Origin: Talaromyces rugulosus | Taxonomy: Eukaryota; Ascomycota; Eurotiomycetes; Eurotiales; Trichocomaceae | NCBI RefSeq assembly: GCF_013368755.1 | Contig: NC_049565.1 | Location: forward strand, 4,278,001 to 4,342,000 | DNA: 64,000 bases | Direction: 5' to 3' | Shown: piece by piece, positions 20,292 through 38,894 of the stretch | Numbering within the stretch: position 1 is the first letter of the stretch | How the letters are laid out: every line of letters starts with the position of its first letter | Program-made: the position numbers and the translations under genes | The notes under the pieces: model-generated | Databases searched by the model: none | Told to the model about the DNA's origin: nothing | What the model saw: the letters and a program-made list of their open reading frames with translations, nothing else

Positions 20292-20951
20292 ATATAGGTC
20301 CCCACTCACAGCTCTTTTCTTCTTCGACACAATGAGATAATCTAGGTCGGATATAGGCTGAAGTGGATCCAGCCAAGATTTAAGAGGAACCGCTCTAGAA
20401 AGCGGGTAATCGACGACCATATGTATTGACTTCAGATTAGGGCCTAGAAATTAATCTGTAAGAGTAAGAGGTAAAACAAAATTTGAATATTACTGTATCT
20501 GTTTACCACTATCAAAATAATAACTCTCTTGTCACGACAAATGTGTTGAGGCCGTTGGGAAAGAAAGTTGTAGCAAAAGTATTCACCGTCTAAATATAAG
20601 GCACTTATTCAATTATTCAATGTTGTTGCCAATCATTTTAGAGATATTAGAGATTCGGCGAACTCAGCATTTCGTGGTGACACGAAATATTTGTAGTCGG
20701 CGTCTTCATCCCGGGCCAGGCCGATTGCGAACCCCCGGAAAGCCCGGTAATCCGGGCTATTACACATCTCGTAGATCAATAATAACAAAAACCCATGATG
20801 CCGAATTTATTAAGCGAGGGAGTTTGGTCCGGGTCGAGATTGATATGCTCTGGCGTTTACCGAGAAATTAGGTGCGAATTGCCAATCCCGTTCAAATAAG
20901 AGTCGCACTTCTAGCACCGGTGCTGGGAAAACACAACATTCAATAACACAA
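20292..20951. promoter_or_regulatory. intergenic, upstream of 3-hydroxyacyl-CoA dehydrogenase-like gene
   Basis: 660 bases with short frames only. A GGGCC/CCCGG-rich patch at about 20710-20760 stands out from its AT-rich surroundings. No motif that I can assign. Confidence 0.35.
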
Positions 20952-22107
20952 ATGTCGACAACCAAGAAGACCGTCACCCTCTTGGGTGCGGGGACTCAGG
21001 GGGCGCGTTTGGCGTATATGGTAGGTTTACTTCCTAGCAGGTAAACAAGCATGTCTTAATATATTATACTGCAGTGGTCTCGGCAAGGATACCCAGTCAG
21101 CCTCATCGACAAAAGCTCAAAGCAACTGGAGCTTGCCGGTGAAAAGATTGAAGCTCTACAAAAGGAGGGGGGCTTCTTGGGCTCCGCAGAGGGTCAATGG
21201 AGCAATGTCACTCGTGCTCTGAGCGATGAACTTAAATCTGCAATCCTCAAATCATGGCTCGTGGTTGAGGTCAGATAAATTGATTTTCAAGACTGAAATT
21301 ATCTTGCTGACAGATTCTGCCAGTGTGTCCCTGAGTCTTTGTCTCTGAAACGAGCTGTCGTCGAAGAGCTTGACCAACTGGCTGGCCCTGAAACAATAAT
21401 CGCCTCTAATTCAAGCAGCTATACGATTACAGAAATTTTGGGCGGTCTGAAAACCAAGTACCCTGATCGATTCGTTAGTCTACACTCATGTAAGTTGACC
21501 CCTGCATCCTCAACGCCCCAGAAGAATAATCCAACATGCCGTTAGATTGGCCACCGGAGACCTCGGGTAAGATCCCTGGAAAGCGATGAGCTTGATTCAC
21601 GGCGACTAAACTAATACATGAAAACAGCTATTGAGATCATGGGCTCGGGCAACACAAGACCTGACATCATATCTCTACTAAAAACAGAAACCAAGGCTCA
21701 TGGTTTCGAGCCCTTCCACGTCCGGAACTTATCGACTGGCTATATTTACAATAGGTATGCAAATTGTGGCCCGCTGACGTAATTAAACAGATTTACTGAC
21801 AGATGCTCGTCGCAGAATATGGGCCGCAATCAAGCGTGAGACCTTGTTTGCGCTAGAGGAAGGTGTTGCTACACCAGAGGAAATTGATGGGATCTTTAAA
21901 GCCGTTCTCAAAACGCCCAAGGGACCATGTGAACAAATGGACGTTGTTGGCTTGGATGTAGTGCTTGATATCGAAAATCACTACGCAGAGGTTCGACCGG
22001 GTCTGCCTGAGGAACCTCGAACGTATTTACAGAAGATGGTAGCTCAGGGCAAGTTGGGTGTTAAGTCTGGCTCTGGGTTTTTCAAATACGGGGATGTGAA
22101 AGAGTGA
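20952..22107 (+). CDS. 3-hydroxyacyl-CoA dehydrogenase-family NAD-dependent dehydrogenase, 6 exons
   Basis: Oxidises a 3-hydroxy acid or its CoA ester (the family includes beta-oxidation HADs and lambda-crystallin/L-gulonate dehydrogenase). Exons: 20952-21020, 21075-21269, 21324-21489, 21546-21566, 21628-21754, 21816-22107; one internal exon is only 21 nt. Residues 9-35 are the NAD fold: TLLGAGTQGARL and VSLIDKS with the Asp that selects NAD. WLVVECVPE and NSSSYTITEI follow, then LHSYWPPETS in place of the usual HFFNP/HPxNPP loop. The C-terminal 6-phosphogluconate-dehydrogenase-like helical domain ends FFKYGDVKE. About 290 residues, single catalytic unit without hydratase. The YWPPETS loop matches a fungal subgroup of unknown substrate. 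No clear peroxisomal signal. First gene of the proposed catabolic cluster, convergent with the regulator. Confidence 0.85.
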
Positions 22108-22174
22108 TCAAAGTAAATTTACATCATAAAGCTGCTCATACAAGTGTGATACAAGTTATAAAAACGACACAAGT

Positions 22175-24746
22175 TTAAAATGTCCGGGCAGCAGGACCTT
22201 GCCCTTGTAAGAACCCGAGGTGAGCTGGAAACATGCTAGTTGACTGAGCGCCATTTAGCATTAAATCAAAATCAAGGTCGTTTTGACCCGAACCCCATAT
22301 AATGTCCGACATGAGCTGATCAGTTTCGACCAGGCCAAAACCCTCTTGGCCCTGGCTAAAAGAGGCATTTTTGGCTAATAAATATTGGTCGGCGTTGCTG
22401 GTTGGATAGGTCGGAAAATTTCCATTGCTCGGTACTGATTGGGTCGATTGTTGTCCGAAGTGGTGATCCCTGTTTAAGGTGCCTGGTGGCAATTGAGCCG
22501 GACCAGCAACAGAAGATCCATTTTGCCCAGTCAGCCTCTTCATCAGATTGATAAAAAGACGCAGGATCCAGCCGGCTACAGGCCATCCCTTTGCGAGTTC
22601 ACTCATTCCTAAAATACACTGCCGAGCTCGATTTTCCGCCAGCTGTTTTTGTATTTGATCGCCACTTCGAATGGTAACAGCGTGAATCGACAAGGCAGCA
22701 AAAATGGCGGGAACCCTAAGTTAAATCCGTGAGCGTTTGAAAGATGTGATATTGGTCAAATTCCTACAAATGTAGCTGTCCAAAACCTAAGGTCCCTGCG
22801 GCTAATAAATCTTCGACAAGTCTGGTAATGGCGTCCGCTGCAACTCTTGCTTTTTTATTGAGCGATGCTGGCTTTTGTGTTTCAAAACCACGACAATCTG
22901 GGCGGAAAAGTAGAATCTGACAATTGCTAGCGTGTGTTAGCAATATTTTGGCGCTGTCAATGCCCTAAAACACTTACTAATAACTTGTATGCAGCATAGA
23001 AGACCAGAAAGGTGCACCGAGAGTTTCATCAACTGATGTCCGGTGGAACTCCGAAGGAAGATTACTTTCCCACTCGCAAAGATGCTCACTCAGACGCTCA
23101 GTTGAAATGTTTTGCGGGTTGACCTTGCAAGGTGCGAATTCATGGTTGAGAAGCTTCCCCACTGATTGAAATTGTCAGAGTCGATGTGAAGTTATGAATG
23201 AGATAGTGCTGAAATAAAGAAGACTCACGAATCACTGCAAGTTTTGCCATTTCAATGACATATAATCTGTGATATTGATATTCGGTGGGAAGAAGCTCGC
23301 TTTCAGATTCATTATCGACTAGAAAGTCCTCTACATCAAGCGCTTCAACATCACAATCCTCGTCATTGATTCTGCAAGGGCGGCCGAGCGAAGCTGCCGC
23401 GTGACGATCACGAATCTATAGTTTGTTAGCTCGATTCAATTTTTGCAATTCCTGACAAACGTCGCACTCACATAGATAGACCACCATATTCTCTTCCATA
23501 TCGCGCGTTGCCGGAACGACATACCGGCGTTGGCCGTCCTGATACATCAAGCAAGCGTCAATATAAGTTTTGTGAAGTAGGGCTGTCATTTAACATACGA
23601 ACGATGTATTCCGAGCGTTTGAGCAAGGCCAATCGCAGCACCGAGCCAATGCCAGGTATCCTTTTGGTCTTCTGGACCTTCCCACCAAAACCCTAACAGG
23701 AAAAGCACGGCTGCAAGTCTCTCCTTATTTTTCTCACAATCCATGTCGTACAAGGCTTTTGCACGAAGATAAAATGCCCTTCGAGCACTATATCGATCAA
23801 GAAAGCCAGCACGCTTCAAGGAAGCCTCGCTACAGATAATCGAGGCCAGAAAGTAAATAGTCTGCTGCACCAGTAGGGACGATCTGTCATGACGATAGAG
23901 GGCGCAAAAGTCCTGGCGATCAAGGACAGGGAATGCGGGATGAACACAATTGAAGAATATATAGACAAGCTCGTCGCTTACATCCTGAGGCGGTAGTGTG
24001 AATGCACCATGCATGTTGAGATATGCTAGGGTTGCAGGATCGGAGTGCTTCAAGCCCTCCGCGGAATTCTGCGCGTGCTCGGCGACATTATTCGGAATTG
24101 GATAGTGAAGTTTCAGCTGAGAAGATGTAGCAGATAGAGATCGTACAATGAACGCCAAGCTGAAGGAGTCACCCATGTAATAGGATCGCATATGTTGTTC
24201 GGTTGAAAATCCAGGAGATTCTGCATCAGGCCCAGACTCTGCCAGCCGAGCATAAAGCATTTCCGGGCCATCACTAGCGTCATATCCTTCTTGAATATTT
24301 TCAGGTATTAAACTGGCAGTCGTTGGTGGGCTGGGGGCCTGGGCCAGGGACGACGGCTGATCCGGGGAACATGTCTCTTCAGGAGCAGTACGCGGTGTTG
24401 GGACACCTGCGCTTTGGTTGGGTTCAGCTGATGCTGGTGTGCCTGGAGATTTGTTGTTTGATCTCACGCCTACGGGTTTTTTACGGGTGTACCTGACATT
24501 TGATTAATATAAATTCCCAGTAGAGGGATGGTGTCGCGCATGACGGACATACTTTCCTCGTCGACTTTCGATCAACTCGCACTGTGTCCCACGAAGGCGA
24601 CAATGCCAGCACGGCCGCACATCGCCCGCGTCACATTTCACGCGTCGGTGGTGGCACGACTTACACGCGACTTTGGTCCTTTTGGCAGACCCCCTCGCTA
24701 GTTGCGTACGGGTTTGTTCCGGAGAAGACATAAAACCGCTAGGCAT
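22175..24746 (-). CDS. Zn2Cys6 transcription factor with fungal-specific middle domain, 7 exons
   Basis: Likely pathway-specific regulator. Exons (minus): 24746-24553, 24492-23599, 23538-23472, 23415-23229, 23161-22978, 22926 to about 22770, 22715-22175. The zinc cluster at about residues 28-50 reads ACKSCHHRRVKCDAG then CWHCRLRGTQC, six Cys in the AmdR/CTF1-beta-like arrangement, followed by a basic ESRRGKYTRKK. The Fungal_trans domain spans about 150-420 (LVYIFFNCVHPAFPVLDR, GFLDRYSARRAFYLRAKAL, RIWWSIYIRDRHAAASLGRP, CQILLFRPDC). The acidic/Gln-rich C-terminus could activate. The domain looks intact. It is divergent from the Baeyer-Villiger monooxygenase, a common layout for a cluster regulator. 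Alternative start: in-frame Met6. Confidence 0.88.
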
Positions 24747-25315
24747 ACCGAAGCACAGGGCGTGGAGGAGGTCCTGGCTAAAGATAATTTCGTGCTTTCA
24801 GAGAGAAAGAAAAGAAAGGAGCTATTGGAGATCTTTTCGAATTGGCTTTTGCCTTTGGAGGCGTCGTCCTCACGAGCGAGATTGCGGGGTCCCCATACGC
24901 GGGGAAAATCCCTAGCAATAGGAATGGAAACGTGTAAGATGGAGTAACGATTCCCAATTCATATGAGCTACCCACAGGTGCACCGTTAGTGAGCGAATGT
25001 GCAGATGGGCATGGGCTAGTTTGGAAAGGTGAGAGTTGAGCGGCGCAGGAGGAGGATATAACACCTCGGCAATTCGCTCACCCCCGCCTCTTCCGGATCC
25101 GAGATATCAAAGTCTAATTTGAGTCGCCGACTTGCTGATCATCTTCGTCAGTCCCCGCAGAAATCAAGTGGGTATGCAGAATAAGCGGGCTCTGCTCAAA
25201 TGTTGGCGATGTCGGTTAAATATTCATGGTCGTGACTGGAGAAGCTTGGTCGAAAGCGTTTCACCTCTATGCAGACCATCTATCGTGTTACCATCTGACA
25301 AGCTCGCTCTTCACC
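24747..25315. promoter_or_regulatory. divergent promoter between Zn2Cys6 regulator and Baeyer-Villiger monooxygenase
   Basis: 569 bases shared by the two divergent genes. It contains the palindrome CGGATCCG at 25094-25101, an inverted CGG pair of the kind many zinc-cluster dimers bind (spacing 2 here), 215 bases before the monooxygenase ATG. Whether this regulator uses it is inference. No TATA box is obvious. Confidence 0.35.
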
Positions 25316-27406
25316 ATGACTAATTCTGCTGCAACAAATGGCTCCGATCCTATTATCACCCAGGGCACGAAGGGCACCCCGGCTTACACCGTCGACGAAA
25401 AGCCTATAGGGACTGCTCGCCCCATCCGAGTGATCGCGATCGGCGCCGGCGCGTCAGGCTTGAACTTTGCACGCCAAATCGAGCTGCATATGCCCAATGT
25501 GGACTTGACCATCTACGAGAAGAATGCAGATGTTGGCGGCACTTGGTTTGAAAATAGATACCCAGGGTGTGCTTGTGATATTCCGGCTCACAACTATCAA
25601 TTCACTTGGGAGCCTAACCCTAATTGGTCAACTTTGTAAGCTGAGACGTTCTTGAATTGTGAAAGACGCCGTAATAATGTTTTCTTTAGCTACGCTCGTG
25701 CTCCTGAAATACTGGAGTATTTTCGCAATTTAGCCCGAAAATACGAGCTCTACCGATATGTCAAGCTCAGCCACCGTGTAGTCAACGCGGAATGGCACGA
25801 GGACAAGGGTATCTGGGAGCTCCGAATTGAAGACTCCACGACTGGGGCCATCTTCAAAGACTCATGTGATTTTATGATTTCAGCATCCGGTATCTTGAAG
25901 TAAGTGTAGCCCCCAACCTCGCTAGAAGATTTGTGGCAACCACCGTGAGCTTGTCTCCGTGTGCTAACAACGGTCCATAGTAACTGGAGGTGGCCTGATA
26001 TTCCCGGTCTGCACTCTTTCAAGGGCAAGCTTGTCCACAGCGCTGCATGGGACGAGGACCTCGAATGGCGTGGGAAGAAGGTTGCAGTTCTCGGATGTGG
26101 CTCATCCGGAGTTCAAATTGTGCCCACAATGCAACCAGGTAGGTCCTGAATGTGCCTATCGAGTATTTATTTGGTATTTATTTGAATTTAACATTTTTAA
26201 AAAGAGGTCGAACATCTCACAACATTTATCCGCACTCCCACCTGGATCACTGCTGGTTTTGCTCAAAGCAAGGCCGGGCCCGGCGGAGCAAACTTCGCTT
26301 GTGAGTATTGACTTGAACTCTCAAGTTGAGGCGTCGACTGACATACTCTGTAGTCAGCAACGAGCAAAAGAAGAAATTCCAAAACGACCCGGAAGCCTAT
26401 TTGCATTATCGCAAAGATATCGAACAAGAACTCAATACTCGATTCAAATTTGTATGGATGTCTATTGTGATTCACCCACAGCGGTTACTAATACTGGAGA
26501 CCAGATTCTTAAAGATAGCCCCGAGCAGGCCGAGTCCGTTCAATTCTCTATCAATGAGATGAAGAAAAAGCTTGGCGAAGACTCCCCTTTGCTGAAATAC
26601 ATGATTCCTTCGTTTGCCGTTGGCTGTCGTAGACCGACACCGGGCAACGGATATCTCGAATCCCTTACTAAGGACAACGTCCGAGTGGTGACTTCGAGTA
26701 TAGCTGAGATTGTACCCGATGGTGTCAAATTGACCACTGGAGAAGTTATATCCGTCGATATCTTCGTCTGTGCAACTGGGTTTGATATCTCCTTCCGGCC
26801 ACGCTATCCTGTCGTGGGCCTCAACGGCATCACATTAGAGGAACAATGGAAAGTGAAACCTGATGGGTATCTATCTCTGGCGGTGCCCAACTTCCCCAAT
26901 CACTTTAGTATGATGCCTTCAACTCCAATTTTTAGGAGGCAACAAGCTAATACCAATACGCAGTGTTCCTTGGCCCTGGGGCCCCCATTGGGCATGGATC
27001 GGTCCTTCCTATCACTGAGCACGCAACGAAATACATACTTCACATGATTCGCAAATGCCAGACTCAGGATGTTAAATCAGTCACTGTTTCGCAAGAAGCT
27101 GTCGATGACTTCAATGAGCATATCCAGGAATTCATGAAGCGCACTGCTTGGAGTACGCACTGCCGATCTTGGTTCAAGAACGGAACGGTCGATGGTCCTA
27201 TTGTCGCATTGCATCCGGGAAGCAGAATTCACTGGTTCCACATGCTCAATGAGCCTCGTTATGAGGACTTTATTTGGCGGAGGCAGCGCGCTAATCGGTT
27301 TTCGTATCTGGGTAATGGATTCTCCACGAAGGAAAGTGTGGGCAAAGATACTGCCTACTACTTCAATAACCCTGAATCTGGCTTCGAATTTGTCAATAAG
27401 CTCTGA
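25316..27406 (+). CDS. type I Baeyer-Villiger monooxygenase (FAD/NADPH), about 7 exons
   Basis: Inserts oxygen next to a ketone to give an ester or lactone. Translation from ATG 25316: Rossmann motif GAGASGLNFARQ (about 40-50), VGGTWFENRYPGCACD, the type I BVMO fingerprint FKGKLVHSAAWD (FxGxxxHxxxW), the second Rossmann motif LGCGSSGVQ, and VCATGFDISFRP. Introns that I placed restore family continuity: WST|FYARAPEILEYF, SGILN|NWRWPDIPG, MQP|EVEHLTTFIRTP, FKF|ILKDSPEQAES and PNHF|MFLGPGAPIGHG. All cofactor and fingerprint residues are present, and the C-terminus (GFEFVNKL) looks natural. No signal peptide. Substrate cannot be told from sequence; related enzymes act on cyclic ketones and on polyketide intermediates. 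Divergent from the zinc-cluster regulator. Confidence 0.92.
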
Positions 27407-28065
27407 TGATTTTCCCTGTTTTCACTAGGAAATTGGGTTTAAACAAGTTGTACATATATCTACGTTGCAACGTGCTTTCTCTATTTTGTTTTTGTTAAAT
27501 GACTATAGAGAAATAATAAATTAAATCAGGTCCGTCTTGAATAGGAAATTGCCGCGGCATCTCGTGTAAAACATTATGTTCCAGGAAAATCGGGAATCTA
27601 CATGGATAGTCATCACGATCATGGTTCATGATGAATTTACGAGAGTAGACCTAGGATGTTCGGAAAGTATCTTTGACTATCTTACGGTGCATTAATCGAT
27701 AAATATTTTCAAACAGCGCATGATATATAGGAAGCTACTTTACCGTTCAGAGGGACTAAAGAATATAGAGACATACAATGCGGGACGAACGCTTTAGGAA
27801 CCATATCCCAACAATCTCGGAATCATGTAATCAAATGCTTTGCCTTTGGTACACCCAAAAAGCCTCGGTTTCTTGAACTGCAGCCGAGTTAGTGGGGACA
27901 TGGTGACTTGGTTACCTTCCCGAACTAGTAACCAAGACGAAAAAATGCATGGTCGCATGTTCAATAAGGTTAATTTTGTTTTCTTGAAACAAAGAAAGTA
28001 CCTTCTGCTCGAAGAATCTACATTTTATCTTGGAGCCCAGTCTTGGTTCCAATCGGCCAAGCAAG
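27407..28065. other. intergenic between BVMO and esterase
   Basis: 660 bases, AT-rich at 27480-27560 and 27690-27800. It probably carries the monooxygenase terminator and the esterase promoter. No frame with family signal and no motif assigned. Confidence 0.35.
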
Positions 28066-29477
28066 ATGGGCATTGTGAATACTGATTTGTTCCCCAAAAC
28101 CGGGCGATGGCTTGCGAGCCGTAATCAACATGAAGAATATCACGTCGAGTGGGAGCAGGTATTATACCATCTTATTACGATGGGCAATAAAACTAAAATC
28201 GTTTCTCAACAGTTTTATAAAGCAAACAAAAGCATTGTCCCCGTGCTACTTGGATCTGTCGGAGAGCTACGGGCGAATATGTTAAAGGCTAAGCTACGAG
28301 GACAAGGAAAATCAAAACCAGTCGGCAATAGTTTGACTGTCAGAGATCACTCTATTACTTTTTCTCAAGGAGATCGTGAGGTGCAAATTCTGTTGAGGAC
28401 TTATGTTCCTGACACAATTGAAACGAACCTTCCGGGAATGCTTTAGTGAGATACCCGGTCGTCCGGACGGATATTATAAGTATTCACACAGGCTAACCTG
28501 ACTTTCCACTTTCTAGTTTCCACGGCGGCGGTTGGGCACTTGGTGATTTGGACGGCGAAGATAGATTTTGTCGACTCCTCTGTAGCAAAGTTCGGCTGGT
28601 GGTAGTAAGCGTTGACTATAGACTGTAAGTTTATGAGAACCGCTACACTTTTAAAACTTGTGCTGAGAACTTGTTAGTGCACCGGAGAATCCGTACCCAG
28701 CGCAGTTGAATGATGCGTGGGCTGCACTAGACTGGGTATATGCTCCCTCTCCCAATTCGAACTTTCAGAGAACGAGGAACTAATTTGAATGCTGACAGGC
28801 TATAAAAGACCACATATCCTTAAAATTAGATGTGGATAAAATCTTAATTGGAGGCACCAGCGCGGGTGCAAATATAGTGAGAAGATGATTTGGAACCACC
28901 TAGTTGGTGTGGATGAGAGAATGCTGATGTTCCATCAGGCTGCGGTGGTATGTCAGGATTCCAAACAGAGGGGTCTGCAAATTCGGGGCCAGCTACTGCG
29001 CATACCTGTGGTATGTCCAAGTGAGCAACATTGTTCTGAATTGGGTCTTCGAAGCATGGTTGACTTGAAGGATCCTGCGATTCTCACTCCGGAATGTATG
29101 AAGCAATTTCTGCGATGGTATAATCCTGCAGATGCATCCCACGTTACCGTTTCACCTCTGCTAGCTCCAAGATTCGATGAACTCCCACCAACATTCTTCC
29201 AGATATGTGGGAAAGATCCATTAAGGGACGAAGGTCTGGCCTATGCTGATGCTCTTGAAAGTGCTGGGTATGTGGATCCCCCCGATTCATACAGCCTGAT
29301 GTCATGGCGCATTTGTTAATACTATTTGGTTGTATGCCTAGGGTTCCCGTGAAAGTAAAGGTCTATCCCGGACTGCCGCATGCTTTCTGGATATTCCCTG
29401 ACATATCCACCACCCAAATCGCCGAGGATGATCTGCTTGAGGGGGTGAAGTGGTTGGTGAAGCAAATTTCAGCTTAA
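28066..29477 (+). CDS. alpha/beta-hydrolase-3 family esterase/lactone hydrolase, multi-exon
   Basis: Hormone-sensitive-lipase-like (PF07859) esterase. Exon 1 runs 28066-28445 (ATG chosen at MGIVNTDLF); its join (TA|T) gives LYFHGGGWALGDL with the oxyanion motif HGGGW. Further exons read APENPYPAQLNDAWAALDW, then GGTSAGANI with the catalytic Ser. An intron after GANI (about 28877-28939) leads into AAVVCQDSKQRGLQIRGQLL and IPVVCPSEQH. The acid is in CGKDPLRDE and the His in PGLPHAFW; the protein ends KQISA at 29477. The triad is complete. About 340 residues; cytosolic. The family hydrolyses short acyl esters and lactones, which fits the products of the adjacent Baeyer-Villiger monooxygenase (inference). 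Confidence 0.85.
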
Positions 29478-30758
29478 CCTCGCTTGCTATCGTTAACGCT
29501 ACCGCGGAATGCAAAATAATATAGAACAATTGGACGCTAAAACCGCTGTTAACGTTCTCCCGGTTCGCAAAGTGGCGGCTAGCGAGATCAGTTTAGGAAC
29601 ACTTTCAGTGGAAGGTCGATTAATTATCCAGTTGAAAATATACCTTCTAGCTAGTTTCTCGGAATTGAAAGCGAGAAGAACAACGGAGTTGGACGATGTT
29701 CCCTACATAGGCTTTTTTGAATCATGATCCGGGACATTAATTATTTGAAGTGGAATGTAGTTGTGTTGAACTTGTGTGACTATGCTGGAAGCCTCAGTCT
29801 CTTGGTTCTCTTCCCAGGATATTCCTTGCCACCCCCTTCCAAGATATGAATTGATAATAATATTCTGAATCGGCCCTGCCTGCGACTAATCTATAGATAT
29901 GAAGATGGGAACGGGACAGTCCTAAAAGATTTTATCTCAGATAGCCCCAAAGACTGTTTTCTTCTTTTTTCCTTCATTTTGTCACAGATCTCGCTCTCCA
30001 AGTGGTATTCAAGCATTGACCAACAGGTGTTGTGGGGGAAAGGGTGCAAGGAGTCTAGATTCTCTACCACTCAGTTATAGCTATATCCAGCACCGTCTGT
30101 TAACGTTTTCTTGTCCAACTTTCGGAGCAGCCGGATACACAGTTTATGAGTCTATAAAGACATTGCCAAACACGTATTTATCACTTGCATTGATATACGC
30201 AAAGATACCGAAGTTGACATCTAAGGCACTATTTAGACATCTACAAAAAAACGTACTTAGGATTAACCCTCTCCTTCTTCCTAAAAACACACAAGTGTTG
30301 GAAATCTTGTCCATGGTAGCATAGGATCATTTATTTTAGCTTCGAAATTTTAAAACAAAACTAGTTGACTCAGCATTACGTGGAATGACAAACCTGTGTC
30401 AACAAATTCCATATACTTTGTAATATTTTCACAAGTGTCATATGTTTCCCTTCGTTTCTATGATTTTGAATATTACTCGGCGTTTCTCAATAATACTTTA
30501 ACAAATTAAGAGCCTTTAAAAGGCGCGCCATCGATTAAATATTCCTAGTATTCTCCAAATAACAAAAATAAACTCGTGTCCGAGCTATGACACTAGATGT
30601 AACAGTGCGGTAGAAATCGGTAGTTATTTCCCCCTCGACACAACAATTCCCACAATCCTTCATTCAGTATTCGAAGTGTCCCCCGGTTGTATTGCCCCGG
30701 ATCGTATATCTCTTGGCTATTGCGTGATCGTTGCCCGGGCTTGAGATGGACGAAAATT
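29478..30758. other. 1.3-kb intergenic between convergent esterase and transporter
   Basis: No gene recognised. Frames at 29509-29727 and 30016-30324 (plus) have no family signal. AT-rich from 30320 to 30560. Confidence 0.4.
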
Positions 30759-32751
30759 TCAAGCTTTATGTGCGACATCACCTCCGTTTTCAACGTGGTG
30801 GACATTTCCTTGTTTCTCAGACAAAATCTTCCGATCCAGATCTTCTCTCTCCTCTGCTGTCAGCTGAGTAAGCTTAACAGCGACCTCGTCACCAAACAAT
30901 TCGCCAATTTCTTCCAAAGATCGACCCTTTGTTTCGGGGAATAGCCACCAGACAACGAATATATGAATCAATGTCAAGACCAAGAATAAAATGTAGTACT
31001 TCCATGAAATATTGGCCAACGCTGTTGGTGCTGCCTCCAGGTATGCCAGTGAAGATAGGAAGAGAATTGCGAGAGACCAAGCCATTCCACGGCCACGGAT
31101 ATGACTAGGGAAAATCTCACTGCAGTAGACATACGTTGTCGCGTCAATGCAGCAGCCATAGCTTCAAAGCGGTGGTCAGTAAGACAGTTTCATGTAACAG
31201 AAAGTGCTCGCCTAGGATAAACCCCTAAACTTACAAAGTGATATAGAGGAATAGGAAAAAGACCCCTGCCCTCAGACCTCCCTGGTTCGTGGATCCAGTA
31301 TATCTTGCAACCATTACTGCTTCAAGAAGTAGACTAACTAGACAGCCTATGAGACCGGTAACTTTGGCTCACATGTTAGTTTGAACAGTTAAAATTTCCC
31401 GGGAGGTCCTTGTAACTTACGGAAAAGCTTTACTCGACCAACACGGTCCACCAGAATTGCAGAAACAAAGTTACCCGCACAAGCCACTGTCACATAGAGC
31501 GCAGACAGGAGAAGGGAAGTTTGATTGTTGAACCCGAGTGATTGATAAAGGAGAACAGAATAGTCTAGTTGTATTAGCAATAATCACTGGCTCAAAAATA
31601 AACTCGTAACCTACTATAGACGACCAGGATTCCTGTTGATTCAGAAGCAAACATGACGATGAATGCGCAAATCATACGCTTTCTATACGACGGCTTTGTG
31701 AAAAGAGTCCAGATAGTTTCTTGAGAGGAGGCAGAGGCATCGGATATTGCTTGTTGGCGAATTTGATAAAATTCTTCACGAGCAAAAGTGAAATCCGCAT
31801 CCGTTGTATTCTTTGAATCTAAATTATGAAGTTTTGAGACAATTTCCCAGGCTTCTTCTGCTCGATCATGAAGCAGGACTGGAATATTTTAGCGAACTGG
31901 TATGTTGATATGACAACTAAGACAAAAACTCACGCCAGCGGGGTGATTCCGGAATCCACGGACTGAGAATTAAGAGGGCAAGTGGCCATAGGCACTGTTC
32001 TGCCAGTGGAAATCTCCACTGAAAAGACTGGTTCTCTGAGAAGTAGCAGGCAAATCCAGTCCAAGCGGCTAGAGAATACCCTGCAACAAGAACAACGCCT
32101 AGGAAGGAAATCAGTCAGCTCTTGATCTAACAACAAATAGAAAACAGGAACTTACCATGCTGAGATACCAAAAAGCCACGAGCAGCCGGTGGTGCTATCT
32201 CGGCCTGGAAGAGAGGGATCAGAACGATGAGAATACCTTTGTTTCGAGTGTAAGTCTTGATCATTAGAACAAACGGCCATAAAACAAACCAACTGCAAAC
32301 CCTCCAATGAAACGTCCGATGAGAAACATAGCAATATGAACTGCACCCGCCTGTAGAGCACCACCGGTAATTGCGAGAGGTGATGCAATCCACAAGGTGG
32401 GCTTTCTACCAAGTGCGTCACAAGACCATCCCGCAAATATCGCACCAAAGAAACCTCCCGCGCAAAAAAGGCCATTCATAGATCCCTCAATTGCTTGAGT
32501 ATAGCTATAGTTCGGGGTGCCAGCCGTTGGCGAGAGGCCAAAGTACGCAAACCAGCCCGGCTGCCCGACAGTGGTGGAAGTGATACTAAACGTATAGCCA
32601 TAAGTCAAACTCCCCAGTGTGAGAGCAAAGACAAGCTAGTAAATCTTAGTGCCTAGAAGGGAAAAAAGGGGAGTTGAAATGCACAAACCGCAAGATTAAA
32701 GGCGGATATCTTGCGCTCCGCTTGTTTTATGGTCTCTGAGTGGAGTACCAT
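30759..32751 (-). CDS. MFS sugar-porter-type transporter, multi-exon
   Basis: Twelve-helix major-facilitator of the sugar porter type (PF00083). From ATG 32751: a short cytosolic lead (MVLHSETIKQAERKISAFNL), helix 1 LVFALTLGSLTYGYTFSI, then SMNGLFCAGGFFGAIFAGW, the loop motif DALGRKPTLW (D-x-x-G-R-[KR]), GRFIGGFAVG, AEIAPPAARGFLVSQHG, the second-half VDRVGR loop, and the closing signature FPETKGRSLEEIGELFGDE. The tail is acidic/charged and ends DVAHKA at 30759. At least six introns interrupt it. The order of signatures is complete, so I take it as functional, although every splice site was not verified. Plasma-membrane uptake of a sugar or small polar substrate is the family expectation; in this context it may import the catabolised compound. 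Confidence 0.82.
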
Positions 32752-33381
32752 TGTGTTGCCCCCCAAAAAGACACGTTCTCTGGAGTTTCGGTTTTGTTGC
32801 TTTAAGCTCAAACTATACCTATGGGATGGACAAGGCTTTTAAACCAACGTGTACGATTGACATGCTACAACTAAGTTTGCCTAGCTATTTCAAATGGCCT
32901 TATACAGGGAGCTTTCCCCGCATAAACCTAAGGGTCCAAGGCTACGGAACCGTGTTCGGCGTCTTGGATCATGCAGGTCGATGATCATATTACCAAAATT
33001 TGGGACATCGTCCCCTGAGTTAGCTTTTCTAAAAGGTATGCTACGTTATTAAGAGACCTCGGTTTTAGCATTCATTGGTGGTCCGTGCGTGCATAAAACC
33101 TAATAAACTCTAATCGTCGAAGCTCCCTTCAAGTTGCATATGCCCAATCGGGAATACGTATCTCAGAAATAAAAAATCTAGATGAGTTTGTGTCCGTTAA
33201 ATCCTTGTCTACGAAGTACTATCCAACAAAATCATACCACAGAAGTTTAGTGTATACATTTCAAGTAAATCTCTCTTTTATTTTAAATCCAGGTTCAGAT
33301 ACGTGCGAATTTCGACCAAAATAGTTTCCATTTCCAGCCTCTGAGCTCAACTTCTGTAGCTATTTACACAAGCAAGGTGAT
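32752..33381. promoter_or_regulatory. upstream region of transporter / downstream of lactonase-like gene
   Basis: 630 bases between two minus-strand genes. The frame at 32751-32984 (plus) is antisense to the transporter leader and carries no signal. Nothing else recognised. Confidence 0.35.
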
Positions 33382-34381
33382 TTATTCAAAGTAGGCCTTC
33401 TCGGTAATTAATTGGTCTGCAACAACCTTGTCATGTCCAAATATCAGCCGTGCGTTGTATAGTCTTTGCAATCGGCGAACCATGTTCAGACTGCGATACC
33501 ATGCGGTATGATCACGAGCTAGTCCACCTTGAGGGTGCCCTTGTTCGTAATTTTCTGCGACGTGGAACTGATCTGTGGTCCATATAAAAGTTCCGTCTTT
33601 TTCGAGATTGACTTGCATAAGGCAAAGACCAGGTGTGTGGCCTGGGGAATGATGCAATATGATGCCTTGATAGATATCCAGAGTCGATTCAGTAAAGGTC
33701 TGCCAGTTAAGCTTCTCTAGTAACATATAATGGCCAAGGTAAACACCTAGATCTGCACCAGTCGCAACGGCCCAGCAGGCGTGTTTAAACTCTTCTTCAT
33801 GGACAATGATGGGAACGTCGGTACCCAAGAAATGCTCGAGGCCTCCGGCATGATCGAGGTGAAGATGACCCATGATTACAGCTTTGACGTCCTTGATGTC
33901 ATTGCCAGTAGCTTTGATCGCATTTGGTAGCTTGTTGTTGTCTTTGTATTGGATCCGGGGGAACACATCAGTGTAAGGAGCACCCCATGCCTAAATTATT
34001 GTTCAATACTATTCACAAATTATATGTAGAGACCCTCACAGACCCTTACATACCACATCGAGGTCTTCTGCACAGCCAGTTTCGAAAAGGATAAGACCAG
34101 TTCCAGGTAACTCGATCAGCGCAGATAGCAGAACCAGCTTACGACGCTTGTTGACGGGGTTTTTGTCGCTCAATGCACTGGAATTGGCACCTCGTAGAAT
34201 CCTATGGCGCGTTCAATACAATAGTGAAAAAGAAAATGCGTATGCAAATATACACATACCACGATTCGTCTACTTCCAAGGTGCCCAAGTCTAGAATGTG
34301 CATCTTCGTACCTAGTGGACACTTGAACGCCGGGACAGCGGCCGAGGCCAGTAGGGCGGCGGCATTAACAGAAGCAGCCAT
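33382..34381 (-). CDS. metallo-beta-lactamase-fold hydrolase, AHL-lactonase-like, 3 exons
   Basis: Zinc hydrolase of the MBL fold (PF00753), closest in layout to N-acyl-homoserine lactonases such as AttM/AiiB. Exon 1 is 34381-34260, joined (TG|G) to ILRGANSSALSDKN and LIELPGTGLILFETGCAEDLD, then AWGAPYTDVFPRIQYK in the last exon (to 33382). Metal ligands are visible: HLHLDHAGG (HxHxDH), His in HHSPGHTPG, Asp in WTTDQFHV and His in IFGHDK. About 300 residues, no secretion signal; an in-frame ATG at 34459 would add a non-conserved extension. It probably opens a lactone ring. Next to a Baeyer-Villiger monooxygenase this fits hydrolysis of a lactone product; quorum-quenching is an alternative. 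Divergent from the SDR at 34748. Confidence 0.85.
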
Positions 34382-34747
34382 GTTGGAGGAATCGATTATA
34401 TCCTCAAAACAAGTAACTAGTGGTGTTAGCAGCTTTGAATCAAATAATAAGGCAACCAAATGAAAACAGCCCGACTTTCAACCATTGTTTAATATCATAG
34501 GCCATTTATTTAATACATGTACTATCTCTAAGTCGCCGTTTTGAACTATATGAACTATATCCCCGCATTTTGCCCGCCCCACATTTCCCATACCCGAAGT
34601 ATGCGTGGGTAAGCCAATTAAAGTTAATTTGCACAAGTCCCCGAGGCGTTTCAAGCCGGTAAACCCCCGTACTCTGTGATATTTAGTCGTCAGCTGGTCG
34701 CAAACTTCATCACTCTAGAAGAAATAATTGTTGACCTGACCATAACC
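34382..34747. promoter_or_regulatory. divergent promoter between lactonase-like gene and SDR
   Basis: 366 bases shared by two divergent catabolic genes. A GC-rich patch (cccgcattttgcccgccccacatttccc) lies near 34561-34590. No site that I can assign. Confidence 0.35.
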
Positions 34748-35655
34748 ATGGAAGCCGATTATTTGCAGCAGACGTTTTCCCTTGGCGGCAAAACCGCCGT
34801 GGTGACGGGTGCCACCGGGGGTTTGGGGCGGTCCTTGGCCGTAGCCTTGGCCAAAGCTGGTGCCTCAACTATTGTTTCGATCGAGATCCCAAACGATCAA
34901 AACAGTCCTGACCTGGAGGCAACGATCAAGGGGCTCGGGCGCTCATTTCTTAGATTTGAATGCGATTTGGCTAACAACGCCGACCTGCGTTCTTGCTACG
35001 CCAAGATCTGGGAAGCAGGGGTCATTCCAGATATTTTGGTCAACTGCGCTGGTGTCATCAGGCGCAAACCCTGCGAGGATGCCACTGACGATGACTTAGA
35101 TTTGGTGGGATTATCTTGAATGTATCCTGTCAAATTTTTTGATTGACTGACATGTTGGGATTTTTACAGTTGTTTGCAGTAAATGTAAAAGCAATCTATG
35201 TCTCATGTCAGGAGTTTGGCCGAAAACTACTCGAGTTGAACCGCCCCGGAAAAATAATCAACATAGCTTCTGTCACAGCTTTCCAAGCAAACAAGAACAC
35301 CAGCATCTATTCGTCCACCAAGGGCGCAGTAATTCAAATGACCAAAGCATTTAGTAATGAATGGGCGAGCAAGGGTATACAAGTCAACGCTATCAGTCCT
35401 GGGTATGTAACTCTGATCTTTTTATGTCTTTTCCAAATTGACTAAAATGACCCACACAGATTCATGACAACACCAATGACTGTGGAGTACGCCAACGACG
35501 CTGAAGTGAATGCGTATCTTATGGGTAGAGTTCCAGCCGCTCGATGGGGTGTTCCAAGTGACTTGGATCCTGCTTTGCTATTTCTAGCTTCTCCCGTAAA
35601 TACCTTTACCACCGGGGTTTCGATCACTGTCGATGGAGGATTCTGCGGAAAATAA
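34748..35655 (+). CDS. short-chain dehydrogenase/reductase (classical SDR), 3 exons
   Basis: NAD(P)-dependent alcohol/ketone oxidoreductase, resembling KduD/2-deoxy-D-gluconate 3-dehydrogenase-type SDRs. ATG 34748 (MEADYLQQTFSLGGK). Cofactor motif VVTGATGGLGRS (TGxxxGxG), acidic residue after beta-2 (SIEIP, suggesting NAD), NCAGVIRR (NAG motif), catalytic Ser in NIASVTAF, and YSSTKGA (YxxxK). The C-terminus reads GVSITVDGGFCGK, the usual SDR ending. Introns lie at about 35105-35168 and 35403-35460; joins give FAVNVKAIYVS and AISPG|FMTTPMTVEY. Catalytic residues are complete. About 260 residues. It could oxidise a secondary alcohol to the ketone used by the monooxygenase (inference). Confidence 0.85.
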
Positions 35656-36043
35656 AGAAGCTTTCGCTGAATGTGCGGGTGGAAGACTGTTATATAAATT
35701 AGTTTTAGGTTGTTTTAAACATTACACGTTTCCAAAATTACATATACATATGTTGGAGCCTGCGGATAAACCATAGATTGGCTGCCTGGGAGACTAAACG
35801 TCCTTTAGTGCAGCTGTTAATATCTCGTTTTGGCTGGAAATCTTGGGCTGTCCAATTTCCTGTGGGATAACCTGGCTGAGGACTTCAACCTAGTCACGAG
35901 ATTGAATGTTATATTGTCTTCTTTTCATAGCTAGATGCTTTGTATGGGAATTGGAAATAGTGTCTTTTAACTAACTATAGGAAGAACTCGTGCAAGAGAA
36001 GAGGCAGGGGTCTCTGAAAGGTCCGGTAATAGTTTCCGGACCA
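35656..36043. other. intergenic between convergent SDR genes
   Basis: 388 bases of shared 3' flank; nothing recognised. Confidence 0.35.
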
Positions 36044-36892
36044 TCAGCAGGTAATCCCCCCATCAACAGTGAAAGTGGCGCCAGTTGTGAAACTTGCATC
36101 ATCGCTCAAAGCAAATGCAATGGTTTTCGCCATATTTTCGGGAGTGCCCATTTTTCGAAGTGGCACATTCTTGTATGTCTCTGTGACCGGGCGGTCACCG
36201 GTGCCAGCATCGGTTTTAATTTGTTGCAGCATTGGTGTGTCCACGGGTCCTCTGGGGTAATCTGAATAAATATTTTATTTCGACAAAGAAGAAGAAGAAG
36301 AAGAAGAAGAAGAAGGAAATACTAACGGGGCTAAAGCGTTGACTCTTATACCTCGCTCGCCGACCTCTTTAGCAGCACTTTTTGTCAACCCAATCACACC
36401 ATGTTTGCTTGAACTGTATGCGGCAATCCCTGGTCGACCGATGACTCCAGCCATGCTGGCAACATTGATTATCGAACCTCCACTTTGCATGACTCGCAGC
36501 TGAGCTCTCAGGCAGTAGAACAGGCCTGTCAAATTTATATCCAGAATGGTAGACCAATGTTCATTGGTAGTTTCTGTGATATTCGCGAAAACTTTTCCTC
36601 CCGGTTGTCCAACAACGCCAGCGATGTTGGCAGCACCATCGAGTCGCCCAAAGTGCGCAACAGCCTCTTTGATCCAGCCGTCGACTTGATCCGAATTGGT
36701 CACGTCAACCACGGTGGTGATGGCTGTAACTCCCTGCGCTTTTAATTCTCCGAGAAGCCCAGACAAAGAGGCTTCGTCCCTGTCACTTAGTGCAAGCGAG
36801 GCACCACGTTTGGCGCATTCAATAGCAGTAACTCGCCCAATACCTGAGGCAGCACCGGTGATTGCGATGACTTTGTTTTCCAAAGAGGCCAT
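36044..36892 (-). CDS. short-chain dehydrogenase/reductase (classical SDR), 2 exons
   Basis: ATG 36892 (MASLENKVIAITGAASGIGR). The TGxxxGIG cofactor motif is followed by ALSDRDE with the NAD-selecting Asp, NIAGVV, Ser in INVASMAG and YSSSKHG (YxxxK). Exon 1 ends at 36327 after NALAP; exon 2 (36251-36044) starts GPVDTPMLQQIKTD and ends ATFTVDGGITC. The 75-nt intron contains an (AAG)10 microsatellite at 36286-36315 on the plus strand; reading through it gives a spurious poly-Ser end. Complete catalytic set; about 255 residues. It is convergent with the other SDR and has a different sequence, so it may act on another step, for example oxidation of the alcohol released from the opened ring (inference). 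Confidence 0.85.
36286..36315. repeat. (AAG)10 microsatellite inside SDR intron
   Basis: Ten uninterrupted AAG units. On the coding (minus) strand they form a CTT run just after the intron donor, that is a pyrimidine-rich intron interior. Confidence 0.9.
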
Positions 36893-38330
36893 GATGATGC
36901 GGGGTGATGACAACTGGGGTGTATAGATGTGTGGGGTTTGGAGGGGCTGGGATGTCCTTTGCTCGTACATATACCCTGGACGTCGTTTTGTTTATGCGAC
37001 AAGCCGCTTTTGTATCCGGGGTTGTCTCCCCTCTCACGGATGTCGGATGGTGCATTAGGGTTAGTTCGATTAGCAAATGCTATTTCAATCGCCGACTATC
37101 CCACAGCCTCGGCTCTATCCCCGCAACGCGGTAGCTTATCTCAATATGAGCTTAATAATAAAAACAGCTTTAGTTATGTCGTCAAATATAGGTCTTTGCT
37201 TCGGAACAAGTGTAAAAATTCGTCAACGATCTTCATTGCGGATTGTCGGTTATTTTTTTCTGTCTTTTTTTTTTCTCCTCCTCCCTGTTCGCTGTCATAC
37301 AGTTATTCTCTTGCTCAAAAACACCATCTCGGTCCTTCAAACGTCTCCCCCCACGAGAAATATTGCTCTCGTCGGCCTTGGCTCTATTGTATTTATTTGC
37401 GACCCTCCACCTACGATACAGACGCCATTGTCAGCATAGGACCCCAGAGCAAATTTAAAAGATTACTTGAATAGCACATCACCACTATATCTTGGAGATG
37501 AAAACAGAAAATAACACATCATCGAATTCTTGTTGTCGACGGATCGGCTACTGATTCAATGTCGAAGATTCCAGCGAATTAGCTTGCTCGGAAGTAGATA
37601 GATAGTCCAGAAGCAAGGTCTAGAAAATTTGGAGTTCACAACGCATAGCTAGGCCCTAATCGAGAAAGTTGGAAAGCCCAATGCCCATCTATGTAGCTCT
37701 ACCCCTGGAATCCCAATAACCGCGCAAGTCTAAGCAATTGCTGATCCCACGCGACTTATTATCGTGCACCTCACATCATCCTTTTGATCGAGATTTGGGC
37801 TGGTCCCCGAGACACCTTTCAATGTCGATTCAGAATGTGTGGGATGATCTCGGTGTCCCTGATTTCCTAGAAAATGGGCTTTCCAAGCCTAAACAAATCC
37901 AACAACGCGTAAACACATGATTCAGCGTGTCAATAGTCATAAACTAAATGGACTTGAATTAAGGTTTCTTCCGCACGGACCGCCCCACTGCGACCTAGTC
38001 GCCAGCGCCGACTCTAAAATGACCCACAAATTCTGCCAATTCTAGGCGTTTCATTGGAGCTTAGATCAGTCCCATACATTTGACCTCGGGGACTTGAGAT
38101 GGTCATTAAACTTTCAATAATCCGAGTCAGAAGAACAACCAAGATAGGAAATTTGTTGACTCGAACGTGTGCCACAAACGCCCAAATTCCCAACCCTTTT
38201 ACTTCCCGGTCTACGAGTCATCTGGGAGGCAGTCAAAACCGCCTAAAATAGTAATAAAAACGATGTGCCAATACTCTCAATACCTTTTCTCGTACAAATT
38301 GACAGTACACAAATATGCCTATTTTTGTTT
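36893..38330. other. 1.4-kb intergenic, no gene recognised
   Basis: Upstream region of the second SDR and 3' flank of the DUF3237 gene. Frames at 36929-37474 and 37738-37920 have no family signal. A poly-T/CT-rich stretch lies at 37251-37290. Confidence 0.4.
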
Positions 38331-38894
38331 TTAGTTCACAACCCGGTAAATCTGATACTCCACCGCCGAGCGACTCTCCTCAACAACAAAACGGCCCTGA
38401 GCAACAAACACGGATTCCTCCACCCATTTGAAATTCGGGTCACTTGTCTCCACGATTGGTGTAGCAAACCACTCTTGGTCCCCGTAGTCGGTACTCTTTG
38501 CATCGGATGCAAAGCTCAATACTTTATTGACCTTGTCGTTTGCCTTGAGTTTACCATTGTAGTGAACGTAAAGACTATGGCCATTGTCGGTACGGGCTTG
38601 GATGCGGACGTCAAGATGAGAGACGTCGGTCGCGGGATCAGTCTATTATGTATTGCAATCGGTTAGCTAAAAGGCAGAAATTAGGGCTTGAGGAAGAAAG
38701 AAAGGTCCACAAACTAAAATCCAGTCACCACTGCCAGGAAGAACCTGGGCCTTGAGCCCGGATCCTTCAACAAATCCACCATTTATAGGAACGATAATAC
38801 GATGGGGACCAGATTTGATAGCATTCAGGTTGACGGTGTTTCCTGCGTCCATGTAGCCTCTCATAGTGAAGACGTGCTCGAGTTTAGGTGCCAT
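38331..38894 (-). CDS. DUF3237 family protein, 2 exons
   Basis: Small protein of about 160 residues with the DUF3237 (PF11578) pattern: MAPKLEHVFTMRGYMDAG, VPINGGFVEGSGLKAQVLPGSGDW, then across the intron (ACT acceptor at about 38645) TDPATDVSHLDVRIQARTDNG and LYVHYNGK, ending FVVEESRSAVEYQIYRVVN. Family members are small beta-barrel proteins, often beside aromatic- or ketone-catabolism genes, function unproven. No signal peptide. It lies at the right end of the catabolic stretch and before the housekeeping block, so it may belong to either. The start is well supported by conservation. Confidence 0.8.

What the first reader, a model, noticed from the sequence alone, without database searches (positions are those of the whole stretch)
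20952..38894. Candidate catabolic gene cluster built around a Baeyer-Villiger monooxygenase
Nine adjacent genes give a coherent route: MFS transporter, two SDRs, type I BVMO, alpha/beta-hydrolase-3 esterase, MBL-fold lactonase-like enzyme, 3-hydroxyacyl-CoA dehydrogenase-like enzyme, DUF3237 protein and a Zn2Cys6 regulator divergent from the BVMO. There is no PKS, NRPS or terpene synthase, so degradation of a cyclic/branched ketone or lactone is more likely than biosynthesis. The motifs are seen directly; the pathway and its substrate are inference. The cyclase-like and CocE-like genes at 14.9-18.1 kb might belong to it.
Basis: partly seen in the sequence, partly recalled or inferred. Interest (0 to 1): 0.75.

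Follow-up and report, generated by a model that had tools for sequence, protein, structure and literature searches.

The report
Fungal cyclic-ketone breakdown gene cluster
A mould chromosome carries a compact set of enzyme genes that look built to turn a ring-shaped ketone into a lactone and then open it, and most of them share an unusual promoter signature that suggests one switch controls them; what the fungus uses it on is still unknown.

Summary
In detail: all nine genes are present at the stated coordinates as complete spliced models without internal stops, with the expected families and catalytic motifs. The genome is very probably Talaromyces rugulosus W13939 (matching contig lengths). 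Two results support a functional cluster. (1) An unbiased 8-mer test over nine promoters finds TCCCCGCA in five (0 of 500 shuffle sets and 0 of 500 real-segment sets as extreme); it stands beside a palindrome AGTCGSCGACT (0-2 mismatches) in the cyclase, regulator/BVMO, MBL/SDR1 and SDR2 promoters. (2) A second locus on C3 has six of the same families, and BVMO/FMO loci are paired with ABH3 hydrolases genome-wide (12 of 35 outside the window, 2.1 expected). Conservation elsewhere is thin: 3 of 46 organism names found in two hit lists share a contig. The cyclase at 14.9 kb probably belongs to the cluster; DUF3237 lacks the promoter signature. BVMO followed by lactone hydrolysis is a well-supported chemical logic; substrate, reaction order and regulation are inference.

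The parts
14759..14788 (-). Compound promoter element of the cyclase gene: AGTCGGCGACT-N11-TCCCCGCA read on the minus strand
14925..16284 (+). PF04199 cyclase-type hydrolase, 328 aa, 7 exons (one GC-AG intron)
   Evidence: model; Pfam E 2.3e-11; only solved relative 5ibz, an uncharacterised protein
16364..18088 (-). CocE/NonD hydrolase, 574 aa, no intron; membership uncertain
   Evidence: TIGR00976 256 bits, cut-off 66.3; promoter has only TCGGCGA
20695..20705 (+). Palindrome variant AGTCGGCGTCT in the 3HCDH promoter, without TCCCCGCA
20952..22107 (+). 3-hydroxyacyl-CoA-dehydrogenase-family enzyme (3HCDH_N + 3HCDH), 289 aa
   Evidence: best solved relative diketoreductase 4dyd
22175..24746 (-). 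Zn2Cys6 regulator, 741 aa, with Fungal_trans domain
25122..25159 (+). Compound element AGTCGCCGACT-N19-TCCCCGCA in the divergent regulator/BVMO promoter
25316..27406 (+). Type I Baeyer-Villiger monooxygenase, 575 aa
   Evidence: best solved relatives are cyclohexanone monooxygenases
28066..29477 (+). Abhydrolase_3 (HSL-type) esterase/lactone hydrolase, 344 aa
   Evidence: best solved relative vibralactone cyclase 6kd0
30759..32751 (-). Sugar-porter-family MFS transporter, 530 aa
   Evidence: TIGR00879 above cut-off
32915..32965 (.). MFS promoter: TCCCCGCA at 32915 and TCGGCGTCTT at 32956, arranged differently from the other elements
33382..34381 (-). MBL-fold lactonase-like hydrolase, 292 aa
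   Evidence: best named solved relatives are N-acyl-homoserine lactonases
34531..34567 (+). Compound element AGTCGCCGTTT-N18-TCCCCGCA in the divergent MBL/SDR1 promoter
34748..35655 (+). SDR1, KduD/gluconate-5-dehydrogenase-like, 261 aa
36044..36892 (-). SDR2, best solved relative cyclohexanol dehydrogenase 4ure, 257 aa
37087..37125 (+). Compound element AATCGCCGACT-N20-TCCCCGCA in the SDR2 promoter
38331..38894 (-). DUF3237 protein, 163 aa; membership not supported by the promoter signature

Best explanation
A co-regulated degradative gene cluster of about 22 kb (14.9-36.9 kb). A sugar-porter-type MFS protein moves a cyclic, probably hydroxylated substrate. SDR2 (cyclohexanol-dehydrogenase-like) oxidises a ring secondary alcohol to a ketone. 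The BVMO inserts oxygen and makes a lactone or ester. ABH3 and/or the MBL-fold enzyme hydrolyse it, and the cyclase-family hydrolase acts on a further ring, amide or lactone bond. The 3HCDH-family enzyme and SDR1 oxidise or reduce the resulting hydroxy acid. The divergently transcribed Zn2Cys6 protein is the likely switch and reads the palindrome AGTCGSCGACT. SHOWN: gene models, families, catalytic motifs, shared promoter words, paralogous loci, BVMO-ABH3 pairing. WEAKLY SHOWN: co-location in other fungi. INFERRED: reaction order, substrate, direction (food or detoxification), and that this regulator binds this site.
For: Complete models and families. Unbiased 8-mer test over nine promoters: TCCCCGCA in 5 of 9, 0 of 500 shuffle sets and 0 of 500 sets of real genome segments as extreme; with it masked, AGTCGGCG in 4 of 9, reached by 1 of 500 and 13 of 500 of the same sets. 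The two words stand 18-20 bp apart in three promoters and 11 bp in a fourth. GTCGSCG-N13-24-TCCCCGCA has 7 places in 35.76 Mb, 3 of them in this cluster. A second locus, C3 306-318 kb, has BVMO, regulator, ABH3, 3HCDH, SDR and cyclase. 13 of 36 BVMO/FMO loci have an ABH3 within 12 kb, 1.32 expected; window excluded, 12 of 35 against 2.13 for anchors displaced by 30-80 kb, p about 0.00025. Venustampulla echinocandica has 3HCDH BP5553_07418 and BVMO BP5553_07420, and an MBL on the same contig; Cadophora DSE1049 has BVMO and 3HCDH on one 171.8-kb contig; A. puulaauensis has MBL (89%) and 3HCDH (76%) on one 3.3-Mb contig, each the sister of the window protein in a tree of selected hits (0.985 and 0.98).
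Against: No expression data. The compound pattern was read off these promoters, so its presence here is partly by construction; the reversed-pattern control gives 2 places. 45 CGG/CCG arrangements usual for this regulator class gave nothing significant (best p 0.05 uncorrected, seven promoters). The 3HCDH and ABH3 promoters lack the full compound element and DUF3237 has neither word. The C3 paralogous cluster has no AGTCGSCG and no MBL or MFS hit. Conservation is thin: of organism names present in two hit lists, 1 of 12 (BVMO-MBL), 2 of 22 (BVMO-3HCDH) and 2 of 18 (MBL-3HCDH) share a contig, 3 of 46 names in all; Cadophora's own listed MBL is on another contig. These lists mix paralogues and strains. 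The T. islandicus BVMO (87% over 81% of the query) has no listed MBL or 3HCDH partner. Most enzymes score below NCBIfam equivalog cut-offs in the rows shown, so no substrate can be read from names.
Confidence: 0.66

Rival explanations
1. Two neighbouring modules: a left ketone module (cyclase, 3HCDH, regulator, BVMO, ABH3) and a right lactone/sugar-acid module (MFS, MBL, SDR1, SDR2) that merely adjoin.
For: The C3 paralogous cluster has the left set without an MBL or MFS hit. On C4 an MFS (44-73% per aligned piece) and an MBL (about 80%) stand together without a BVMO, ABH3, 3HCDH or SDR hit in the fetched flanks. In Cadophora DSE1049 the BVMO and 3HCDH share a contig but the listed MBL is on another one.
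Against: The compound element occurs in both halves (cyclase, regulator/BVMO; MBL/SDR1, SDR2). 3HCDH and MBL share a contig in A. puulaauensis and Venustampulla, at unknown distance.
Confidence: 0.2
2. A tailoring or self-protection part of a biosynthetic pathway whose backbone enzyme lies elsewhere; the BVMO modifies a natural product.
For: Several BVMO hits carry names such as stcW, MoxY or tazF, and one name given to the T. islandicus orthologue begins 'Sterigmatocystin biosynthes'.
Against: No backbone enzyme among the ORFs scanned; four different hydrolase families (ABH3, MBL, cyclase, CocE) and a sugar-porter transporter in one stretch; many other BVMO hits are named cyclohexanone or steroid monooxygenase or are unnamed. 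Such names were not tested.
Confidence: 0.12
3. Chance grouping of common accessory families.
For: SDR, MFS, ABH3 and Zn2Cys6 genes are abundant (107 SDR1-like matches; 51 ABH3 loci).
Against: Promoter words; the C3 paralogous cluster; only 2 of 36 BVMO/FMO loci, this one and C3, have ABH3, cyclase and 3HCDH within 15 kb.
Confidence: 0.05
4. A vitamin-B6-like pyridine degradation route (4-pyridoxolactonase, the 3HCDH-family FHMPC dehydrogenase, an SDR and a hydrolase).
For: The MBL matches 4-pyridoxolactonase and the 3HCDH protein matches FHMPC dehydrogenase among others.
Against: Scores far below cut-offs (74.5 of 325; 125.9 of 500), with better matches to other families; a BVMO has no place in that pathway as I recall it.
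Confidence: 0.02

Closest known systems
Bacterial cyclohexanol/cyclohexanone catabolic operon (chn; recalled, from no call)
   Same: SDR alcohol dehydrogenase, BVMO and alpha/beta-hydrolase in sequence; here SDR2, BVMO and ABH3 have cyclohexanol dehydrogenase, cyclohexanone monooxygenase and vibralactone cyclase as best solved relatives
   Different: No aldehyde dehydrogenase or Zn-alcohol dehydrogenase among the 11 modelled proteins; adds MBL, 3HCDH, cyclase, sugar porter and a Zn2Cys6 regulator
3-Hydroxyanthranilate catabolic cluster of aspergilli (PMC7842363, passages seen)
   Same: A fungal catabolic cluster with a syntenic BVMO, an SDR and a transporter
   Different: Its dioxygenase, decarboxylase and semialdehyde dehydrogenase were not found here; 'cyclase' and 'lactonase' do not occur in its text
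Fusarium FDB1/FDB2 benzoxazolinone detoxification clusters (PMC4726666, passages seen)
   Same: MBL hydrolase, another hydrolase, transporters and a Zn2Cys6 regulator in an inducible cluster; paralogous genes in two clusters of one genome
   Different: Amidases, dienelactone hydrolase and salicylate hydroxylase instead of BVMO, ABH3, SDRs and 3HCDH
Second T. rugulosus locus C3 306-318 kb (this work)
   Same: BVMO, regulator, ABH3, 3HCDH, SDR1-like SDR and cyclase
   Different: 25-56% identity per aligned piece, no MBL or MFS hit, no AGTCGSCG

Membership tests
Type I BVMO | Two GxGxx[G/A] motifs plus [A/G]GxWxxxx[F/Y]P[G/M]xxxD and FxGxxxHxxxW[P/D] (PMC4498894, passages) | tested here: met
   GAGASG, GCGSSG, GGTWFENRYPGCACD, FKGKLVHSAAWD
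chn-type cyclohexanone operon | SDR, BVMO and alpha/beta-hydrolase families together | tested here: met
   family level only
chn-type cyclohexanone operon | Dedicated hydroxy- and oxohexanoate dehydrogenases (recalled) | tested here: not met
   none among the 11 modelled proteins; a Zn-alcohol-dehydrogenase-like ORF lies at 57.2-58.2 kb, outside the cluster
N-acyl-homoserine lactonase AhlS (NF047976) | Score above curated cut-off 475 | tested here: not met
   122.9 bits; metal motif HLHLDHAG present
KduD (TIGR01832) | Score above curated cut-off 338.85 | tested here: not met
   223.9 bits
3-Hydroxyanthranilate catabolic cluster | 3HAO, ACMSD and AMSDH genes | tested here: not met
   not among 10 models and 20 further ORFs scanned with Pfam
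FDB cluster | Amidase, dienelactone hydrolase and salicylate hydroxylase beside the MBL | tested here: not met
   not among 10 models and 20 further ORFs scanned
Secondary-metabolite biosynthetic cluster | PKS, NRPS or terpene synthase | tested here: not met
   none in 10 models and 20 further ORFs; outside the window not tested
Co-regulated fungal catabolic cluster | Shared promoter signature | tested here: met
   full element in 4 of 9 promoters
Co-regulated fungal catabolic cluster | Conserved co-location in other species | tested here: inconclusive
   3 of 46 organism names in two or more hit lists share a contig
Co-regulated fungal catabolic cluster | Co-induction by substrate and dependence on the local regulator | not testable with these tools
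   needs expression data

The most novel reading that the evidence does not exclude
The cluster degrades a polyhydroxylated ring (an inositol- or quinate-like cyclitol): a dehydrogenase makes the ring ketone, the BVMO expands it, the lactonases open it to a sugar acid, and the KduD-like SDR1 and the 3HCDH enzyme carry that on. A sugar-porter transporter is in the cluster, and a further copy of the compound element, 41 kb left of the window (C5:4236837), lies between an FMO gene and a gene whose best NCBIfam match is inositol 2-dehydrogenase (below cut-off). This would be an oxygen-insertion route for cyclitol breakdown.
Probability: 0.05. Interest if true: 0.8.

Novelty: new variant of a known kind. 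Interest (0 to 1): 0.5.

Why it matters
Physiological substrates of BVMOs are said to be widely unknown (abstract of PMC4498894), and this fungus has about 36 BVMO/FMO loci. The cluster offers a set of partner enzymes, a candidate regulator and a short candidate binding site, so regulon and substrate become directly testable. The genome-wide pairing of BVMO/FMO genes with ABH3 hydrolases suggests that ketone-to-ester-to-acid cleavage is a recurrent tactic in this genome.

Tried and rejected
Classical CGG-Nx-CCG, CCG-Nx-CGG and CGG-Nx-CGG sites, spacings 0-14, seven promoters: best p 0.05 uncorrected over 45 patterns. A simple automatic gene finder missed or mis-spliced several genes and was replaced by hand models. 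The palindrome AGTCGSCGACT alone is not rare (19 places genome-wide, as many as its reversed control), so only its combination and local crowding carry weight. Of the 4 places of the compound pattern outside the cluster, those on C1 and C4 lie in coding-like frames (a 668-aa frame; the first exon of a predicted gene), the one on C2 lies in 185- and 187-aa open frames just upstream of a predicted gene, and the one on C5 lies between two divergent gene models but inside a 239-aa open frame. One or two such places are within chance. CocE and DUF3237 families show no significant nearness to BVMO/FMO loci. T. reesei L-fucose system (PMC12370193, passages): its l-fucose dehydrogenase is an SDR, but I saw no further likeness. 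Fusarium lactam/lactone transcriptome (PMC10512309, passages): induced clusters include cyclase and SDR genes, but the term Baeyer-Villiger does not occur. Literature searches, judged by their listings, showed no description of this gene set; that speaks only for those searches of an open-licence library. No structure prediction was run. Co-location in other fungi could be judged only from contig lengths and locus tags of protein hits.

A second look lowered the novel case from 0.06 to 0.05.
Full report
WHAT IS THERE. The window lies at C5:4278001-4342000 of a 35.76-Mb genome in six contigs. Two protein hits named TRUGW13939 (Talaromyces rugulosus) sit on contigs of 5361510 and 5343016 bases, the lengths of C4 and C5, so the organism is very probably T. 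rugulosus W13939. Hand-built spliced models give complete proteins without internal stops for all nine genes of the finding and for a cyclase (14925-16284) and a CocE-type hydrolase (16364-18088) to its left. Pfam gives the expected family for the ten proteins scanned, NCBIfam gives CocE_NonD for the CocE protein. Catalytic motifs are kept. The BVMO satisfies all four published hallmarks (definitions seen in passages of PMC4498894).

WHAT THE ENZYMES RESEMBLE. Best solved relatives are cyclohexanone monooxygenases for the BVMO, diketoreductase and 3-hydroxybutyryl-CoA dehydrogenases for the 3HCDH protein, 2-deoxy-D-gluconate 3-dehydrogenase and gluconate 5-dehydrogenase for SDR1, an entry called beta-lactamase (6cgy) followed by N-acyl-homoserine lactonases for the MBL, vibralactone cyclase and HSL-type esterases for ABH3, one uncharacterised protein for the cyclase, an uncharacterised protein and two UPF0311 proteins for DUF3237, and cyclohexanol dehydrogenase for SDR2. 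Among the NCBIfam rows shown (25 of 228 and 25 of 229 for the two SDRs), only the transporter (sugar porter) and the CocE protein pass a cut-off. Substrates therefore cannot be read from names.

PROMOTERS. I first noticed a repeated word by eye and therefore ran an unbiased test: all 8-mers over nine promoters of the region, against shuffles and against random real segments of the same genome. TCCCCGCA stands in five of nine; 0 of 500 shuffle sets and 0 of 500 real-segment sets give as extreme a word. With it masked, AGTCGGCG (four of nine) is best, reached by 1 of 500 and 13 of 500 of the same sets (a first run with 60 shuffle sets is). The real segments are mostly coding and some fetched loci overlap, so that control is imperfect. 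AGTCGSCG occurs 11 times in the window against 2.64 expected; 7 of the 11 matches are in the nine promoters against 0.39 expected from 147.6 kb of other sequence of this genome. An exact palindrome counts twice, so these 7 matches are 5 sites. The two words lie together: palindrome, 18-20 bp, TCCCCGCA in the regulator/BVMO, MBL/SDR1 and SDR2 promoters, and with 11 bp in the cyclase promoter. The MFS promoter has TCCCCGCA and a variant TCGGCGTCTT shared with the 3HCDH promoter, differently arranged. Genome-wide, GTCGSCG-N13-24-TCCCCGCA has 7 places, 3 of them here (the SDR2 copy differs by one base and is not counted by this pattern); the reversed-pattern control gives 2. Of the other 4, two lie in coding-like frames, one is doubtful, and one (C5:4236837) lies between an FMO gene and a GFO/IDH/MocA gene whose best NCBIfam match is inositol 2-dehydrogenase, below cut-off, though also inside a 239-aa open frame. 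That place could be chance. GCGGGG also fits the carbon-catabolite repressor consensus SYGGRG (recalled), so the second word may be a repressor site. DUF3237 has neither word; ABH3 has neither in full; CocE has only TCGGCGA.

PARALOGOUS LOCI. At C3 306-318 kb the same genome has a BVMO, a Zn2Cys6 regulator, an ABH3, a 3HCDH protein, an SDR1-like SDR and a cyclase. It has no MBL or MFS hit and no AGTCGSCG. At C3 4.815-4.824 Mb BVMO, cyclase, ABH3 and SDR hits lie together. At C4 1.077-1.081 Mb an MFS and an MBL like the window's stand side by side. Over 36 BVMO/FMO loci (FMO-type genes included), 13 have an ABH3 within 12 kb against 1.32 for random placement; with the window excluded 12 of 35 against 2.13 for anchors displaced by 30-80 kb. 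For cyclase at 12 kb it is 3 of 36 against 0.34, for 3HCDH 2 of 36 against 0.21, the window being one of each; at 8 kb the cyclase count (1 of 36) is not significant, and CocE and DUF3237 are not significant at either distance. Non-BVMO anchors away from BVMO genes show 1 of 10 (cyclase), 0 of 6 (3HCDH) and 2 of 11 (CocE) with an ABH3. These genome searches score only the best candidates, so counts are lower bounds.

OTHER FUNGI. Three searches of a very large protein set list 120 hits each for BVMO, MBL and 3HCDH. Matching contig lengths shows Venustampulla echinocandica with all three on one contig, the 3HCDH and BVMO tags being BP5553_07418 and BP5553_07420, which leaves room for one gene between them as in the window; Cadophora sp. 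DSE1049 with BVMO and 3HCDH on a 171.8-kb contig; and Aspergillus puulaauensis with MBL and 3HCDH on a 3.3-Mb contig, at unknown distance. Against this, of organism names that appear in two lists only 1 of 12 (BVMO-MBL), 2 of 22 (BVMO-3HCDH) and 2 of 18 (MBL-3HCDH) share a contig, 3 of 46 names in all; three names occur in all three lists, of which Xylogone shares no contig and Cadophora's MBL is on another contig. The lists mix paralogues, strains and cluster representatives, so this does not show absence of linkage, but conservation is not broadly shown. In trees of selected hits the window MBL and 3HCDH are each sister to the A. puulaauensis protein (0.985 and 0.98), and the BVMO groups with T. 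islandicus and then A. filifer. The MBL is 89% identical to A. puulaauensis but 80% to its own paralogue and 78% to T. proteolyticus, so patchy inheritance or transfer between genera is possible; I did not test it further. T. islandicus has the BVMO orthologue but no MBL or 3HCDH in the listed hits.

HOW IT PROBABLY WORKS. Sugar-porter transporter; SDR2 makes a ring ketone; BVMO makes a lactone or ester; ABH3 and/or MBL open it; 3HCDH and SDR1 process the hydroxy acid; the cyclase-family hydrolase cuts another bond; the divergent Zn2Cys6 protein switches the set on. Only the parts list, motifs, promoter words and grouping are shown. Order, substrate, and nutritional or detoxifying use are inference. 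I put 0.66 on a single co-regulated degradative cluster, 0.2 on two adjoining modules, 0.12 on a detached biosynthetic part.

KNOWN OR NEW. It works like bacterial cyclohexanone operons (recalled) and recalls two fungal clusters seen in passages, the 3-hydroxyanthranilate cluster with a syntenic BVMO (PMC7842363) and the FDB clusters (PMC4726666), but it meets the defining gene set of none. The searches listed under Tried and rejected showed no description of this set. I rate it a new variant of a known kind with moderate interest: no surprise in enzyme chemistry, but a well-bounded, testable regulon for an enzyme class whose natural roles are mostly unknown.

Noticed in passing
L046 1029-10000 and L047 1-2114 (G000:C3 306.5-317.6 kb): A second BVMO cluster in the same genome with six of the same families (BVMO, regulator, ABH3, 3HCDH, SDR, cyclase).
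   Followed up: partly
G000:C3 4814617-4823561: A third group: BVMO, cyclase, ABH3 and SDR hits within 9 kb.
   Followed up: no
G000, 36 BVMO/FMO loci: BVMO/FMO genes are paired with Abhydrolase_3 genes far above chance (12 of 35 outside the window within 12 kb, 2.1 expected).
   Followed up: yes
L055 3837-3873 (G000:C5:4236837-4236873): Copy of the compound element between an FMO gene and an inositol-2-dehydrogenase-like gene, about 41 kb left of the window; may be chance.
   Followed up: partly
L010 and L048 (G000:C4 1.073-1.082 Mb): Paralogous MFS and MBL genes side by side; a predicted piece at L048 2793-3484 looks by eye like an aldehyde dehydrogenase end (no family search run on it).
   Followed up: partly
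window 1718-3466: A second CocE/NonD-type (Peptidase_S15) hydrolase gene near the left end.
   Followed up: no
window 10000-10499 and 18500-18999: AT-rich patches (27.6% and 31.6% GC) on either side of the cyclase/CocE pair, perhaps mutated repeats.
   Followed up: no
window 13003-13692: ORF with a Pol_BBD match, probably a retroelement remnant, just left of the cyclase.
   Followed up: no
window 33382-34381 and P0121: The MBL is closer to Aspergillus puulaauensis (89%) than to its own paralogue (80%) or T. proteolyticus (78%), hinting at patchy or horizontal inheritance.
   Followed up: partly
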